From an uncultured Saprospiraceae bacterium (GTDB lineage: Bacteria > Bacteroidota > Bacteroidia > Chitinophagales > Saprospiraceae): a stretch of DNA of 64,000 bases. Below are positions 27,656 through 35,357 of this stretch, piece after piece; position 1 is the stretch's first letter; the number at the start of each line of letters is the position of its first letter. The stretch covers positions 1-64,000 of the forward strand of contig CAJQRD010000016.1 of NCBI GenBank assembly GCA_905480605.1, read 5' to 3'. The notes beneath the pieces were generated by a model. The model saw nothing but the letters and a program-made list of their open reading frames with translations. It was not told the DNA's origin and did no database searches. Position numbers and translations under genes: made by a program.

Positions 27656-28243
27656 TTATTTTGAAGCCTCAATCTTATTGATGAATTCTGTTGCTTTAAA
27701 CATATCAGAATCATTTAACTTGGCTAGCATTTTCTTAAGTTCATCAGGTTCTTCTCCAGATTGAGCTGCGATAAAAACAAGAAGGAGGTTCACATCTGAT
27801 TCTAAGAATTCATCTTCCCATTCGGTAGCATTTATTAATGCCTTACATTCTTCATATTTTTTGGCTTTGAATAAAAGATGAGATTTTACATACGAATCCA
27901 CTTCAGAAAGGTTGGAGTTATGCAATTTTTCAAGAACCAATGAATATTTTTTGGCATTTAATTCATTTATATAAGAATCTACGATGTTTATTTGTCCAGA
28001 TCTCGACTTGCTGATTTTAGGGAAAGTGTATGATTTAGCGACAAGATCTTGTCTTAAGTCTGAACCATCTTGAAAATTTAGTAATCCTGAAATAGCAATT
28101 ATTCCAAGAACCAATATTGCAGCCACAGCATAAGAAATATATCTTTTGAGAGTAAATGCTTTAGTTTGAGCTTGCAATGACTTTCTAGACGCCGCTTCAA
28201 AAAGCAAGTCTTCTATAATTCTTTCTTTATCTGTGTCTTTCAA
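27656..28243 (-). CDS. Single-pass membrane protein, probable anti-sigma-type partner of the adjacent ECF sigma factor
   Basis: A 195-residue protein with an N-terminal cytoplasmic part of about 27 residues (MKDTDKERIIEDLLFEAASR), one transmembrane helix (about 30-50, ISYAVAAILVLGIIAISGLL), and an outer part of helical, TPR-like pairs (YINELNAKKYSLVLEKLHN, YVKSHLLFKAKKYEECKALI). It starts 2 bp after the sigma-factor stop, a tight operon. That position and topology are what is seen for anti-sigma proteins, but the short N-terminal part has no zinc-type (HxxxCxxC) or FecR motif, so the role is inferred from context only. The outer TPR-like part could sense a periplasmic partner. Confidence 0.55.
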   Translation of the reverse strand: MKDTDKERIIEDLLFEAASRKSLQAQTKAFTLKRYISYAVAAILVLGIIAISGLLNFQDGSDLRQDLVAKSYTFPKISKSRSGQINIVDSYINELNAKKYSLVLEKLHNSNLSEVDSYVKSHLLFKAKKYEECKALINATEWEDEFLESDVNLLLVFIAAQSGEEPDELKKMLAKLNDSDMFKATEFINKIEASK

Positions 28244-28245
28244 AT

Positions 28246-28845
28246 TTATGAACTTAAGAGGTTATGATAATCTTTTAGCGTTTTTGATAACCCTTCATTA
28301 TCTTCAACAAGTTTTAATAACTTTTTCAAACATGTATGTTTCCGCTTTCTTGTAGATTCTAGACTAACAAATGATAATTTGTGCATAATCTCTTTCATAG
28401 AGTAGCCTTTTGCCCATAAAAACATGGTGTTTTTGCATATCTCGCCAATGAAAGATAATTGCTTATCCAGCAGCGTTTTTAATTCCTTATGGTACATTGT
28501 TGCAGTAACTAAGTCCGAATCTTCTACAATATCAATTTTTAACTCGGCATGATTTGACTTCTTATTATCTCTAAAGTAATTGAGAAGCATATAGTTTGAC
28601 AAGTTTTTTATATATCCCAATAGCTTACCTTGATGTTCATATTTTCCCGACTTTACCAAGAGTCCAAATTTGACAATTATATCAGTCCACAATATATTCG
28701 TTTCATTATTTGAAAGGCCTCTCATTTTTAAAAACGAAATAATAGGGGCCTTAAATCTTGCTGTCGTATATAAATAAGAAATAGCCTTATCATGTTCTTT
28801 AGGGCCAGACTGTAAATATTTCACTATCTTTTCATCATCTATCAT
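28246..28845 (-). CDS. ECF-type RNA polymerase sigma factor
   Basis: About 199 residues when started at the internal Met of MIDDEKIVKYLQSGPKEHD, which is the usual opening of Bacteroidota ECF factors; an upstream in-frame ATG at 28887 would add 14 residues. Sigma region 2 is weakly conserved around residues 25-90 (KAISYLYTTARF, then LLGYIKNLSNYMLLNYFRDNKK). Region 4 is at 130-180 (LSFIGEICKNTMFLWAKGYSMKEIMHKLSFVSLESTRKRKHTCLKKLLKLV). It is a divergent member of the family. It is followed directly by a one-pass membrane protein and diverges from the exported-protein/caspase genes, which are the obvious candidates for its regulon. Confidence 0.75.
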   Translation of the reverse strand: MIDDEKIVKYLQSGPKEHDKAISYLYTTARFKAPIISFLKMRGLSNNETNILWTDIIVKFGLLVKSGKYEHQGKLLGYIKNLSNYMLLNYFRDNKKSNHAELKIDIVEDSDLVTATMYHKELKTLLDKQLSFIGEICKNTMFLWAKGYSMKEIMHKLSFVSLESTRKRKHTCLKKLLKLVEDNEGLSKTLKDYHNLLSS

Positions 28846-29014
28846 AGTTATCGTATAGGGTTTCACTACAGAAAACAGTAAATACATTTATATAATAAAG
28901 CAATACATAATTAATAAGCAACAATAAAAAATGCAATTAAAAGTAACACTATTCTACTTTGAAGTTATTAAAGAGTAAATAAACTTAATTTTTAACAATA
29001 AAAAAATCAATAAA

Positions 29015-29679
29015 ATGAAAAAAGTAATTTTATTAACGGGATTGTTCTTAGCGGTTAACTTTTTAAATGCCCAAAATAGTGGGGACAGAGAAAAAAGATT
29101 AGCTTTATTCGTACACGAAGCAAATTTAATTAAGTCCAGCACAACAGATGTTACTCAACAAGAAAATAGAATTGTTAGACTTGCTGGGAATTTTCTAGCA
29201 GAATACAGATCAAAAGATGAGGTGAAAAATATGGAGGATATCGAAAACAATCTCCTTTCTTGTCATCAATGTGATCCAGTAAAAATTAAAAAATACTTGG
29301 CTCTTATTTCTGATAGAAATGGCAAACCAGCTATGTTTCCCAGCAAACTATTAATAGCTTTAGGGCCAAGAAAAATGATAAAGAATTATCAGCTGCTATC
29401 AAAATTTATGAAAACGTTGGTTCACGAAACTTAGGTGACAATAATATTTGTTTAACAGGAAACTGTGACAATGACAATCATGTAAACCCTAAATCAAGAG
29501 GACAAGTAGCAGATGTCTGGATGTACACTGGACAGAAAAAATTCTTTATAGAAGAAGACATGAAGGGATGGAGATACTATTGTAAGCAGACAAAAGCCAA
29601 TGCTGAAGATCCGCTTAATACACATACAGAAAAAGATGAGTATGGCTGGAAAAAAGCAGAGAATGTAGACAAATGGTAA
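29015..29679 (+). pseudogene. Exported protein of unknown function, interrupted by a one-base deletion
   Basis: The first frame (29015-29434) has a signal peptide (MKKVILLTGLFLAVNFLNAQN) and ends abruptly. The coding sense continues in the -1 frame to a TAA at 29677-29679, with residues such as AAIKIYENVGSRNLGDN and EKDEYGWKKAENVDKW. Restoring one A in the A5 run at 29371-29375 joins both parts into a smooth protein of about 221 residues. I recognise no family; a CHQC motif and several further cysteines (ICLTGNCDND) suggest disulphides in the periplasm. A strong terminator follows at 29698. Whether the lesion is genuine, a sequencing error or slippage cannot be decided here. Confidence 0.75.
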
Positions 29680-29697
29680 TGAATTGACTATATTAAG

Positions 29698-29729
29698 ATG
29701 GCTGCTCAGTGTAGCAGCCATTTTTTTTT
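29698..29729 (+). terminator. Terminator/attenuator before the outer-membrane/caspase genes
   Basis: A perfect 9-bp stem (ATGGCTGCT / AGCAGCCAT) with a 6-base loop followed by nine T residues. It closes the first exported gene's unit and lies only 36 bp before the ATG of the next gene, leaving very little room for a separate promoter, so partial read-through (attenuation) is possible. Confidence 0.85.
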
Positions 29730-29764
29730 AAAATAAATATATTATAAACCAATATTAACCTCTA

Positions 29765-31291
29765 ATGAAAGCTTTAAATTTAATATTATTCATAATCTGT
29801 TTTCAGCAAATTTCTAATGCACAAAACACTACTGGTTTAACAATAGAGTATAATTTATTTACAGATCAGATTACCTATAAAAAGGGAAATGAAATAATAA
29901 ATAAGCCTGAAATAAATCAAGATGAAAACATCACTGTTATAATTAAAGAGTTTAACCCTTATATTACCAAAAGTACAATTGAGGTACATCAAATAAATTA
30001 CTTACAAAGTTCAACAACTCTAAATGCTGGTGATTCTGTAGCTCAACCCACTAAAGGCTTTGGAGGTATGGGGAGTATTTTGGGCGGTTTGTCGCTAGGA
30101 AATGGTGCCTCAGGAATATACGATAACATTCCAGGATCAAGAGGTGCGTCTTCCAAAGACATAATGCAGGCCAAATCCAAATATAGACAAATGTTAAAAA
30201 GTCTCACGCTTGTTGAAAAAAAACTAAACAAATCTGCTGAGAAAATAAATCTATTTAAGACTCAGAAAAGCAGTCAAAATCTTGCATCATCAGACATCTC
30301 AAAATAAAAAAACAACCCAAACATTAGACCATCACGAATAAAGGAAATGATTGAAGAAGAAATCCTTCATGCCTTTGCCAAGCAAAAAGGTGAATCAATT
30401 GCTATAGAAGACCTCATAGACGAAAAAAAGAAAAAAAATGATGTTATAGACGCCGTAAAAAAATACCAAATATCTCAAAAAGAATACAAAGAGATAGCAA
30501 ACGATTGGATCAGCTTTAACAATACAATTGGAATTATTAACAACGAAATGAACGATGATCAACTTAACTTCATCCAAGTATCAGCAGATTCAATAGTCAA
30601 TTCAATGTCACAGAATTTAGCCAATTTTGAAAATTCACAAATTTCTAGTGATGAATTGTCAAATAGCCTTACGGACCAAGCATCATTATCAGCATTAAGA
30701 AGAACTTATGAAGAGCTGCAAAGTAATGATTTTATTTACACGTTTCCACCAATCCAAGCTGAAGGAGATGCAGTTGATTTAGACATTGCATTTTCAAGAA
30801 AATCGGAAAGTGGGGATTATGAAAACTATAAAAACCTTAAACAAAAAATACCTGTTTCTGGTGGTTGGAAAATATCTGGTGGAATTGGAATGTCATTTGG
30901 TTCTTTTGCCAAAAAAACATATAAACATACTGTTGTTAACAATATAATAGTTGGAGATGAACAAGATACTTTTATTCCCACTATTACATCGTTCGCCCAT
31001 ATCTACAAACAATCATCTAAGAGTGTAAATATAGGAGGATCATTTGGAATAGGACTTCCAATATTAACAGGTGGCAGCATTCAATCTGCTTCTTTTTTCC
31101 TAGGACCAACATTGTTGATTGGAAAAAGTCAAAGATTATTATTAACTGCTGGTGTAATGGGTGCAAAAGTTGAACGACTGACGAGTGGTTTTAGTATCGG
31201 TGATTCATTCGAAGGGTTTACAGAGGTTTTGCCTGTTAACCAAAAGTATGATCTAGGTTTCTTTATCAGCGTATCTTTTAATGTACTATAA
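29765..31291 (+). pseudogene. Probable exported outer-membrane protein split by an in-frame TAA
   Basis: The first part (29765-30307) has a signal peptide (MKALNLILFIICFQQISNA) and a Gly-rich stretch (KGFGGMGSILGGLSLGNG). It stops at codon 181 (TAA, 30305-30307). The same frame stays open past the stop, through KNNPNIRPSRIKE to the end at 31291. The second part has no signal peptide of its own. It contains helical, coiled-coil-like sequence (about 30350-30780) and then alternating beta-strand sequence with an aromatic end (GWKISGGIGMSFGSF ... YDLGFFISVSFNVL), the look of an outer-membrane barrel. Together they would make one 508-residue exported protein; CAA to TAA would explain the stop. The alternative is two genes, the second starting at ATG 30347. 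Confidence 0.6.
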
Positions 31292-31294
31292 GTC

Positions 31295-33231
31295 ATGATT
31301 ATGAAAAAGTTATCAATAATTTGTTTTCTTATACTTTTCACATTTGGTATCCAAGCTGAGAAACATGCACTTATTATCGCAGTTGGAGATTATCCCATAG
31401 ATGGCGGATGGCCAAGTATATCAAGTAAGAATGATATTTCACATATAGAAAATGCATTAAAAATTCTTGGGTTTGATCCAGCAAATATTTCTAAAGTAAT
31501 TGATGGAGAAGCTACAAGGGAAGGAATCCTAAAAGCTTTTGAAGCACTTACCAAGAAAATAAAACCAGGTGACAATATTTTCATTCACTTCTCAGGGCAT
31601 GGTCAACAAGTCATGGATAATAATGGTGATGAAATTGATCAATTAGACGAAGCTATTGTTCCTTATAATTCTCCTGTAGACTATGTTGAAGGTTTTAATG
31701 AAGGTCAATATTTGATAAGGGATGATCTAATCTCATCATTGACAAATAAAATCAGACAAAAATGTACCGCTACAGGTCAATTGATATTAATTTTAGATTC
31801 GTGTCATTCAGGAACTGGTACCAGAGGATTTGGAAAGTCAAGAGGTACAACAAAATTAATGGCACCATCAAACTTTAAAAAATCAGACAAAAAAGAAACA
31901 ACAATGGGTCTTGTTATTGAAGATAATAACAATCTAGCGCCTATGTCTAGCTTCTTCGGCGCAAGTGCTATGGAATTAAATTATGAAACTTCAGATGACC
32001 AATCCAAACCAGTTGGAAGCTTGAGTTTTGCTATTGCCTCTATCCTAGCCAACATGAAATCTAAATATTCTACTCAGGAACTTTTTGAAAGAATAAAGCT
32101 AAAAATGAAAACGATTGCACCACGTCAAAATCCACAATTTGAAGGGCCAAAAGATTTGATAATTTTCGAAGGTGAAACAAGTGCAACTGATTACTTGATT
32201 GATGTTGAAAAGACAATCACTCCTAAAGATATAATCATTTCAGCTGGAAGCATGGTAGGTGTATATGAAGGATCTGCTATTGACATAATCTCAATGGATA
32301 CCGACCAAGTTGTAGGCAGAGGCAATGTAATCAAATCGACTTTAACTTCAAGCACTGTAGAATTAGATGAACCACTTACCTCGAAAAAAGATGAACTTAT
32401 TAAAGCTAAAATAATTGACAAAGCAGAACCAAAAGTAAAATGTCTAATTAACAATCAGCTCCCAAGTGATTGCCAATGGTCATCCGTAATTGATAAAGTA
32501 ATAAATACATCTATTTATGAATCAAATGATGTGAACCCTAATATCACAATATCTACCTCCGAGAATAAAAAGGATATAACAATTGCCTCAAGTGATGGTG
32601 TCATCTTATATCAAAACACATACAACCCAGCTAAGAAGATAAGACAGTTCAATGAGTTAACAAACACATTCAACAAATACAATCAAGCACAATTTTTAAG
32701 AAGTTATAACATAGAATCAAACTTTGACCTAAGCTTGAAATAATCGAAGTCGATTGTGAGAGTCCAGAAAATGAAAAAGCGCTTTCCGCAGCTTCAGAAA
32801 TTGAATTAAAATTAGGTCATTGCATAAAGTTCAGGGTAACCAATAATGGAAAGAAAAAATCATACTTTTCTTTGATTGATATACAGTCTGATCATACAAC
32901 CAACGTGGTCATACCAACAATATCAATGGGTTATACTGCTGAAGAATATTTTCTAGCTCCAGGAGAATCATTCACTACAGATTTTCATTTACAAATTGGA
33001 GAGCCTATTGGACTTGAGACATTAAAATTGATAACCAGCAAAAATCCTTTAGATCTTTCTTCCATAATCCAAAGCACTGGTAATGCAACGCGTGGTATAG
33101 GCGATTTACATCCATTTGAAAAAATGCTACTGAGCAGCAAGTCGCATTCAACAACTAGGGGTATTGTCATTAAGAAATCTAATGTTTCGGATATTGGTGT
33201 GGAGACTTTATTTTTTGAGATCGTTGAGTGA
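31295..33231 (+). pseudogene. Exported caspase/metacaspase (C14) with DUF4384-like tail, frameshifted near the junction
   Basis: The first frame (31295-32743, 482 residues) has a signal peptide (MKKLSIICFLILFTFGIQA) and a full C14 caspase-like domain. His102 lies in FIHFSGHGQQ and Cys170 in LILDSCHSGTGT, with the p20-type core between and after them. A beta-rich middle (about 290-480) follows. The coding sense then continues in the -1 frame to 33231 with a DUF4384-like domain (SYFSLIDIQSDHTTN, then EYFLAPGES). Restoring one A at 32738-32740 fuses them into about 645 residues. The peptidase domain itself is undamaged, so the truncated 482-residue protein could still be active. It lies 3 bp after the outer-membrane gene: one operon. 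Relatives cleave after Arg/Lys; substrates unknown. Confidence 0.8.
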
Positions 33232-33372: not shown

Positions 33373-33403
33373 TCATAACAATCTTTTATTCCTAAAAGCC
33401 ATT
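33373..33403 (-). pseudogene. Second copy of a GIY-YIG C-terminal tail (remnant)
   Basis: Reverse-strand reading gives MAFRNKRLL followed by a stop, the same tail that ends the GIY-YIG relic next door (MAFRNKRLI). The shared DNA is an exact 18-base repeat (TTATTCCTAAAAGCCATT at 33386-33403 and 33483-33500). Upstream of this tail the sequence is GAAGCCTTGGCGAATGAG, the core of the palindromic repeats found 400 bp away. Confidence 0.6.
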
Positions 33404-33469: not shown

Positions 33470-33702
33470 TTAGATTAATCTCTTATTCCTAAAAGCCATT
33501 CCAGATCAAGACTTTAAATATTTCTCGAAATGAAATGCTTTTCGCTTATTGGGAAATTGGCATGTCAAAACCAATTTAACTGGCAGTTTTTTTTTGTAGA
33601 TTTTACTTGGCTATATGTATCAGCATTAATTCCTGCCTTGATATTCGAAGTGCAACCTGTATAGTCTGTGTTATCAGAACAAAGTAAGATTTACAGTTTA
33701 GT
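33470..33702 (-). pseudogene. Decayed GIY-YIG nuclease-family gene
   Basis: Reading the reverse strand gives the order of a small GIY-YIG endonuclease: ILLCSDNTDYTGCTSNIK (the G-x-Y/Y-x-G core in its YTG-C-T-S-N form), then LPVKLVLTCQFPNKRKAF, HFEKYLKS and SGMAFRNKRLI, ending at TAA 33470-33472. It is broken by an in-frame TAA before ILLCSD, a frame change in the A9 run at 33587-33595 and a TGA inside the EKYLKS-SG junction. No start codon is left. Complete relatives are about 80-100 residues and common in Bacteroidota, often next to repeats and RNA genes, as here. Confidence 0.8.
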
Positions 33703-34160: not shown

Positions 34161-34548
34161 AGTGGAGCCGCAGGGATTCGAACCCTGGTCCAGACAAAGC
34201 GCTCATAGGCTTTCTACATGCTTAGTTTGTTCTTGAATTTTCGACGTTGAACAGGTGTACAAACAACCAGCTCTCTGCTTATCTTCTTAATTTCAGAAAG
34301 TCACCGAAGTTTTAACTTTCCTAGTCCAAGCGATATACCCTAAGTACATCTTTCATTATACACTGATAAGTAGGAATATCAGACTTCATCCTACACAGTG
34401 CAAAAAGCTATGCTAATTCTAAATTAGGCAGCTAATGCGAATCTGTTGTCGCCAATTATATAGTAATCACCATTTGAACGAAGTGTGTGATCAATTCTCC
34501 GGCATGCTTACTTACAAGAAATCTTTCCTGTCAATACCAGTCGGCCCC
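34161..34548 (-). ncRNA. ssrA: Transfer-messenger RNA (ssrA)
   Basis: A tmRNA of about 388 nt. The 5' end GGGGCCGACTGGTATTGACAGG and the 3' end with T-arm (GGGATTCGAACCC in complement) form the tRNA-Ala-like part. The acceptor stem GGGGCCG pairs with CGGCUCC and includes the G3-U pair that alanyl-tRNA synthetase needs. CCA is not fully encoded. The tag reading frame (34424-34453, complement) begins after ATAATT and reads GDNRFALAA, then TAA; the LAA end is the usual proteolysis signal. tmRNA rescues stalled ribosomes and tags the unfinished protein. Pseudoknot regions between were not folded in detail. The gene is one-piece, not permuted. Confidence 0.95.
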
Positions 34549-34803: not shown

Positions 34804-35357
34804 TTACAATTTAACAGTTGAAGTTACCAGATTTCGAGATATCTCAACACTTATTTCATTTGAAAAATCAGGCAAAGAAGTAGCCATATTAAATGTTAAT
34901 ACTGAATGATAGATACTTGACTTGGTCCTTCGCCAACTGTACAAATTATCGGATAATCTACAGGTGCTAAGCAAGCAGGATTGAATGAGTCACCTACAAT
35001 ATAATTGCCTCCTGATCAAGTACAATAAGGTGTTGAACTATTGGCAAGAAATCCATTCAAATCGAATGGTGCTGAAAAATTTATAAACGTATTTGGTACA
35101 GATGTTAATTCCACAATAGGACTATCACTGACATCAATGGTTAGACTAAAAGATTCAATACACTCTCCTCTCCCGTTAGAACTTTTAGAATGTGACTTCC
35201 TAATGGTAAATCAGCAATATCTAAAATAGTATCTTCTAAATTAATACCATGCAATTGCCACATCCCAAAACGTCATTACTTAAATAGCTAGACAAAGCTA
35301 TCTCAGAATCTGGCATTTACCCTCGTGTAAAGCTTCAGTAAACTCTTTTGCTGGCAT
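34804..35357 (-). pseudogene. Decayed secreted Ig-like/adhesin gene
   Basis: The reverse strand can be read through several frames as typical Bacteroidota extracellular repeat-domain sequence: INLEDTILDIADLPLGSHI, then ECIESFSLTIDVSDSPI, then PYCT-stop-SGGNYIVGDSFNPA (the stop being TGA where Trp is expected), then APVDYPIICTVGEGPS and finally ISVEISRNLVTSTVKL. At least two frame changes and two internal stops break it, and no signal peptide or good start remains. The Cys-Thr-Trp-Ser-Gly-Gly pattern is that of Ig-like domains repeated in large T9SS-secreted proteins. It is probably the remaining C-terminal piece of a once larger protein. Confidence 0.6.

What the first reader, a model, noticed from the sequence alone, without database searches (positions are those of the whole stretch)
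27656..33231. Secreted caspase locus divergent from an ECF sigma / membrane-protein pair
Seen: an ECF-type sigma gene followed 2 bp later by a one-pass membrane protein with a TPR-like outer part. Diverging from them are three exported proteins: a Cys-rich unknown, a probable outer-membrane barrel, and a metacaspase-type peptidase with His102/Cys170 intact and a DUF4384-like tail. Known: C14 caspase-like proteins are common in Bacteroidota and some take part in cell death or defence. A periplasmic or surface caspase with a dedicated sigma/anti-sigma-like pair and its own outer-membrane partner is an arrangement I do not recognise as described. Inference: the membrane protein senses the envelope, releases the sigma factor, and the caspase processes envelope or surface proteins.
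Basis: partly seen in the sequence, partly recalled or inferred. Interest (0 to 1): 0.78.

Follow-up and report, generated by a model that had tools for sequence, protein, structure and literature searches.

The report
Sigma-controlled secreted caspase locus, here broken
This stretch holds a gene switch (a sigma factor plus a membrane partner) beside genes for an exported caspase-like protease; the same switch-plus-caspase set recurs across a bacterial family with a matching promoter, so it looks like a real envelope-signalling system, but in this genome the protease half is broken by mutations.

Summary
The layout is real: a sigma gene and, 2 bp on, a one-pass membrane protein, divergent from exported proteins ending in a caspase (His102/Cys170 intact). 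The "Cys-rich" gene and the caspase each carry a frameshift, so the DUF4384-like tail is out of frame. The "barrel" is one secreted gene cut by an in-frame TAA. Same-family and same-genus relatives have intact versions (caspase 641-658 aa).

The seven closest sigma relatives in 199 family genomes all sit beside this caspase. Sigma-type genes lie within 8 genes of 30 of 57 caspase loci, and sigma, membrane-protein and barrel-protein distances track caspase distances.

New here: a shared promoter. RGTAAC-N16-GTTATY lies in the sigma/effector gap of the window (28942-28969) and of five relatives, and upstream of further locus genes. A related TGATAAC box precedes sigma and caspase genes more widely.

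Best reading: an ECF sigma with a TPR-type anti-sigma-like partner drives secreted caspase-family proteases. The effector half is lost in this genome; the switch is kept. Precedents exist (sigma-metacaspase operons; ECF-TPR-caspase loci; Craspase), so this is a new variant. Trigger, substrate and sigma binding are untested.

The parts
27656..28243 (-). One-pass membrane protein (195 aa): ~30-aa cytoplasmic N-terminus, TM ~32-60, TPR-like outer part; anti-sigma-like candidate
   Evidence: relatives 20-38% identity beside the sigma gene in 7 loci
28246..28887 (-). ECF-type sigma factor (213 aa), intact
   Evidence: 7 closest relatives all beside the caspase; family members hit Sigma70_r2/r4; TIGR02937 E=0.0021, below cut-off
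28942..28969 (.). AGTAAC-N16-GTTATT: predicted (possibly bidirectional) ECF-type promoter between sigma and effector genes
   Evidence: same box and exact spacing in L037, L038, L039, L042, L043
29015..29434 (+). Exported protein, N-terminal part; frameshifted near 29370, the ORF runs on out of frame to 29434
29368..29679 (+). C-terminal part of the same exported gene in another frame
   Evidence: tblastn with L037 paralogue, 42% identity, frame +1
29700..29719 (.). Inverted repeat followed by a T run: terminator-like, between the first and second exported genes
   Evidence: read from the sequence; not tested
29765..31291 (+). Secreted barrel-like protein (~508 aa in relatives), interrupted by TAA at 30305-30307
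   Evidence: one TAA inside an otherwise full-length match
31295..32743 (+). Secreted caspase (Peptidase_C14), H102/C170 intact; ORF ends early by frameshift near 32731
32731..33231 (+). DUF4384-like C-terminal region of the caspase, out of frame
   Evidence: (51% identity to L037 residues 479-650)

Best explanation
The locus belongs to a recurrent family of Saprospiraceae loci in which an ECF-type sigma factor and its TPR-bearing one-pass membrane partner control genes for exported clan-CD proteases (a C14-DUF4384 caspase, often with TPR-CHAT or C14-TPR proteins) and envelope partners. Proposed working: the membrane protein holds the sigma factor at the inner membrane through its cytoplasmic N-terminus (inferred). 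A signal in the periplasm acting on the TPR-like part frees it (inferred). The sigma factor then transcribes its own operon and the effector genes from a shared box, RGTAAC-N16-GTTATY in this subclade (supported by motif statistics). The exported caspase, with a metacaspase-type acidic pocket, cleaves after Arg/Lys on envelope or surface proteins (inferred from family). In this genome the sigma gene, membrane gene and promoter box are intact, but the three effector-side genes are each disrupted, so this copy is most likely a recently inactivated, regulator-only remnant.
For: Co-occurrence: the 7 closest sigma relatives in 199 genomes (E<1e-39) are all beside the caspase, then similarity drops to about 29% with hits elsewhere; the 8 strongest BAR hits are all beside the caspase; sigma within 8 genes in 30/57 caspase loci against 16-35 sigma-type genes per genome. 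Co-divergence: Mantel r=0.51 (sigma), 0.34 (membrane protein), 0.88 (BAR), P=2e-4 each. Promoter: same box and spacing in 6 divergent gaps; TGATAAC upstream of sigma 11/28 and caspase 10/31 against 8/185 background; 4 of 7 genome-wide TGATAAC-N15/16-CAATA sites in the locus in same-genus G207. Lesions; intact same-genus caspases in L141-L143. No other C14-DUF4384 copy in this genome.
Against: Sigma-membrane-protein binding, signal and substrate are untested. The window membrane protein has only ~30 cytoplasmic residues, short for a classical anti-sigma domain, although relatives have ~85. The window sigma itself scores below Pfam and NCBIfam cut-offs. About half of the caspase loci show no sigma within 8 genes, some of them at contig ends. 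The lesions could be assembly errors, since the genome is a draft.
Confidence: 0.72

Rival explanations
1. The three lesions are sequencing or assembly errors (or a mixed-strain consensus), and the system is intact in the living organism.
For: Draft assembly of 125 contigs; one frameshift lies in an A run; sequence on both sides of each break is as conserved as elsewhere.
Against: The lesions differ in kind (one nonsense substitution, two frameshifts) and cluster in about 3.4 kb, while ten adjacent ORFs checked elsewhere in the window showed no split Pfam domain and the rest of the window is long open frames. A degenerate remnant of another secreted gene lies at about 34930-35260.
Confidence: 0.17
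2. The exported caspase cleaves the outer part of the membrane protein and so itself starts release of the sigma factor: an envelope counterpart of the Csx29-Csx30-CASP-sigma circuit.
For: The protease is exported to the side where the TPR-like part lies; fixed gene partnership; Csx29, a caspase-like protease, cleaves the inhibitor of an ECF sigma (PMC10028731).
Against: No direct evidence of cleavage; some caspase loci lack the pair; intact regulators persist here without an intact protease.
Confidence: 0.12
3. It is a defence or cell-death module: damage to the envelope triggers secreted caspases that kill the cell or a competitor.
For: Clan-CD proteases, TPR-CHAT, a kinase-caspase fusion and CHASE2 genes cluster with it; caspase-ECF-TPR neighbourhoods were proposed as conflict systems (PMC8195603); patchy distribution.
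Against: Effectors are exported rather than cytoplasmic in this family; no EACC or TRADD-N domain found (EACC1-caspase model 29 bits against cut-off 140); no immunity gene identified.
Confidence: 0.25
4. Ordinary secreted nutritional or surface-processing protease that happens to lie near a sigma pair.
For: Secreted proteases are common in Saprospiraceae (general knowledge); BAR paralogues occur without the caspase or sigma.
Against: Sigma orthologues exclusively beside the caspase, co-divergence, shared promoter boxes.
Confidence: 0.07

Closest known systems
Metacaspase operons with sigma-70 genes (Myxococcus and other Deltaproteobacteria, Ralstonia, Fibrobacter; Asplund-Samuelsson 2012, PMC3501461)
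   Same: Caspase homologue in an operon with a sigma factor
   Different: The passages read mention no membrane anti-sigma-like partner, promoter motif or Saprospiraceae example; homology of their sigma factors to this one not tested
EACC2-caspase neighbourhoods with ECF sigma and TPR (DUF1822) genes (Kaur 2021, PMC8195603)
   Same: Caspase + ECF sigma + TPR protein
   Different: Those couple a constant EACC2-caspase to variable domains; here exported C14-DUF4384 with a transmembrane TPR protein; EACC-type model not met
Craspase / Csx29-Csx30-CASP-sigma (Strecker 2022, PMC10028731)
   Same: Caspase-like protease and an ECF sigma with an inhibitor in one locus
   Different: No Cas7-11 or Csx30 recognised; exported protease; the inhibitor candidate is transmembrane
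RseA/DegS-type and FecR-type envelope signalling (general knowledge)
   Same: ECF sigma followed directly by a one-pass membrane protein with a periplasmic part
   Different: TPR-like outer part; short or non-standard cytoplasmic domain; caspase effectors
Eukaryotic-type metacaspases (PDB 7qp0, 4f6o, 6w8s)
   Same: Closest solved relatives of the protease domain, same His/Cys and acidic motif
   Different: Signal peptide, DUF4384-like C-terminus, sigma-linked

Membership tests
Peptidase C14 (caspase/metacaspase) | C14 domain above the Pfam cut-off | tested here: met
   Window 70.7 bits against 21.4; 20/20 family members at E<=0.01
Peptidase C14 (caspase/metacaspase) | Catalytic His and Cys | tested here: met
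   H102 and C170 in the window; both columns invariant in 20 aligned members
Peptidase C14 (caspase/metacaspase) | Intact gene in this genome | tested here: not met
   Frameshift near 32731; relatives 641-681 aa open
DUF4384 | Domain above the Pfam cut-off | tested here: inconclusive
   Window fragment 13.6 bits against 27; L037 26.2 to 27.3 against 27; 18/20 members at E<0.01
ECF sigma factor | Sigma regions 2 and 4 | tested here: inconclusive
   Window protein no Pfam hit, TIGR02937 E=0.0021 below cut-off; homologues in equivalent position match r2 (11/17) and r4 (8/17)
ECF sigma factor | Autoregulated two-box promoter | tested here: met
   Motif statistics only; no transcript data
Membrane anti-sigma factor | Cotranscribed with sigma, one TM, cytoplasmic N-terminus | tested here: met
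   2 bp spacing, one hydrophobic segment; cotranscription and topology predicted, not measured
Membrane anti-sigma factor | Sigma-binding cytoplasmic domain | tested here: inconclusive
   ~30 aa here; ~85 aa in relatives with weak NCBIfam anti-sigma hits (E 0.003-0.007)
Membrane anti-sigma factor | Binds and inhibits the sigma factor | not testable with these tools
   No binding or activity data
Outer-membrane beta-barrel | Barrel fold | tested here: inconclusive
   No Pfam or PDB match; model pLDDT 34
EACC1/EACC2-caspase conflict systems | EACC-associated caspase model | tested here: not met
   NF047832 29.1 bits against cut-off 140
Craspase (type III-E CRISPR) | Cas7-11 and Csx30 in the locus | tested here: not met
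   The Pfam-scanned and listed locus genes are sigma, TPR membrane protein, caspases, CHAT, CHASE2 and unknown families; none was recognised as Cas7-11 or Csx30; no dedicated CRISPR search was run

The most novel reading that the evidence does not exclude
A self-amplifying envelope circuit in which exported caspases cleave the periplasmic TPR part of a dedicated anti-sigma factor, freeing the ECF sigma factor that transcribes more caspases: an extracytoplasmic counterpart of the Craspase sigma circuit.
Probability: 0.1. Interest if true: 0.85.

Novelty: new variant of a known kind. Interest (0 to 1): 0.58.

Why it matters
Bacterial caspases are numerous in Saprospiraceae-type bacteria (28 in Haliscomenobacter hydrossis, PMC3501461), and it is not known what they are for. 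A conserved, exported caspase with its own predicted sigma factor, anti-sigma-like partner and promoter box gives a direct handle: find the trigger of the sigma factor and the function of the protease follows. The broken copy, with its regulators intact, also shows that the effector half can be lost separately.

Tried and rejected
Programmed frameshift or stop read-through: rejected because relatives read straight through without any shift. A second intact copy in the same genome: none, only distant 31% hits. TGATAAC as the window's own promoter: absent from the sigma/effector gap (positions), which led to the RGTAAC-N16-GTTATY box. Structure of the barrel-like protein: model too poor to use. 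PDB profile search for it: only chance coiled-coil hits. Same-genus synteny at this site: flanking genes are on different contigs and diverged, so no empty site could be read. Some motif sites lie inside coding sequence (L043 3778, L141 6596) and the two before the lipoprotein gene overlap the end of the CHASE2 gene; they are not counted as support.
Full report
WHAT IS THERE. The window is contig C16:1-64000 of a 4.5-Mb draft genome (125 contigs, 98% complete). Relatives found with the caspase are Saprospiraceae MAGs. On the minus strand lie a 213-aa sigma-type ORF (28246-28887) and, 2 bp downstream, a 195-aa one-pass protein (27656-28243, TTG start). The caspase ORF has Peptidase_C14 (E=1.9e-19) and H102/C170.

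All three plus-strand genes are disrupted. The first gene is frameshifted near 29370; its second half reads in another frame to 29679 and matches L037 relatives (42%). The ORFs 29765-30307 and 30347-31291 are one frame of one gene cut by TAA at 30305; the L037 protein aligns straight through at 57%, and the family profile finds a full-length match with one TAA. The caspase loses its frame near 32731; the DUF4384-like region (32731-33228) aligns at 51% in frame +1. In 398 family genomes the other caspase copies listed carry no internal stop, including three of the same genus (G206, G207, G202; L141-L143; ORFs of 641-645 aa).

REAL LESIONS OR ERRORS? The reads are not available. The lesions differ in kind and cluster in about 3.4 kb. 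Ten neighbouring ORFs chosen as suspicious showed no split domains, and the rest of the window is long open frames. A decayed secreted-gene remnant lies nearby (about 34930-35260). I favour true inactivation but keep assembly error as a rival.

IS IT A SYSTEM? In 199 family genomes the seven closest sigma relatives (34-51% identity, E<1e-39) are all beside the caspase; the next are at E~1e-27 and elsewhere. The eight strongest matches to the barrel-like protein are all beside the caspase. Over 57 caspase loci, sigma-type genes lie within eight genes in 30, TPR membrane proteins in a similar number, the barrel-like protein in 21, C14-TPR proteins in 27, TPR-CHAT in 17 and an unnamed ~510-aa family in 17. 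With 16-35 sigma-type genes per genome chance would give roughly 7 of 57 (my arithmetic). In 15 loci of barrel-protein paralogues without the caspase, a sigma gene appears once. Distances of sigma, membrane protein and barrel-like protein follow caspase distances (Mantel r=0.51, 0.34, 0.88; P=2e-4 each); shared descent of the host genomes contributes to this. The family extends thinly beyond Saprospiraceae (5 other of 296 phylum genomes at E<1e-60), and no sigma gene was seen beside those five.

PROMOTER. Upstream of sigma genes, TGATAAC is the most enriched 7-mer on the sense strand (11/28 against 8/185 other genes, p=1e-6 before correction for 2861 words), and it is independently the top word upstream of caspase genes (10/31, p=1.8e-5). 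In the same-genus locus L142 five genes carry TGATAAC-N15/16-CAAT (expected 0.02); four of the seven exact TGATAAC-N15/16-CAATA sites in that whole genome are in the locus. The window's subclade uses a related box, RGTAAC-N16-GTTATY, with the same 16-nt spacer in the window (28942-28969) and in L037, L038, L039, L042, L043, and again upstream of a lipoprotein and a kinase-caspase gene in L037 and a kinase-caspase gene in L038 (Pfam). Genome-wide, 13 of 68 core sites in eight genomes fall in these loci, roughly 0.3% of each genome (my count); six of those 13 defined the motif and two or three overlap coding sequence. The box is near-symmetrical, so one site could serve both directions; that is inference.

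HOW IT PROBABLY WORKS. Shown by sequence: gene order, catalytic residues, signal peptides (44/51 by a simple hydrophobicity rule), shared promoter boxes, helical-hairpin outer part of the membrane protein (pLDDT 65-85 over residues ~110-195). More distant membrane homologues have ~85 cytoplasmic residues, one TM and TPR repeats, with weak anti-sigma matches. Inferred: sigma sequestration, periplasmic trigger, caspase cleavage after Arg/Lys (from the metacaspase family; closest solved relatives are metacaspases), target in the envelope or on the surface.

KNOWN OR NEW. Sigma-70 genes in metacaspase operons were reported in Myxococcus and others (PMC3501461). ECF sigma + TPR + caspase neighbourhoods were described for EACC2 systems (PMC8195603). 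Csx29 cleaving an ECF sigma inhibitor is the mechanistic parallel (PMC10028731). I found no description of the exported caspase with a transmembrane TPR partner and this promoter, within an open-access library only. I rate it a new variant of a known kind.

Noticed in passing
34162-34548: tmRNA gene (tag GDNRFALAA) on the minus strand, about 930 bp beyond the broken caspase; tmRNA genes are common island insertion sites, but no island ends were looked for.
   Followed up: partly
34930-35260: Degenerate minus-strand remnant of a secreted protein (reads ...GGNYIVGDSFNPACLAPVDYPIICTVGEGP...), broken across frames.
   Followed up: partly
L037:8049-9776, L038: Protein kinase fused to a caspase domain downstream of the secreted caspase, with the same promoter box about 18 nt before its start.
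   Followed up: partly
L040, L045, L046, L057, L059, L063, L064, L143, L147: Exported TPR-CHAT proteins next to the C14-DUF4384 caspase: two clan-CD proteases in one locus.
   Followed up: partly
L142:5248-6777, L040:5109-6629 and others: Unnamed exported ~510-aa family without Pfam match, in 17 of 57 caspase loci and 11 of 15 barrel-paralogue loci.
   Followed up: partly
L172, L173, L175, L178, L179, L180: Paralogues of the barrel-like protein beside CHASE2 and two unnamed exported families without the C14-DUF4384 caspase: a related locus type.
   Followed up: partly
33380-33403 and 33477-33500: 24-nt direct repeat (96%) in the gap after the caspase.
   Followed up: no
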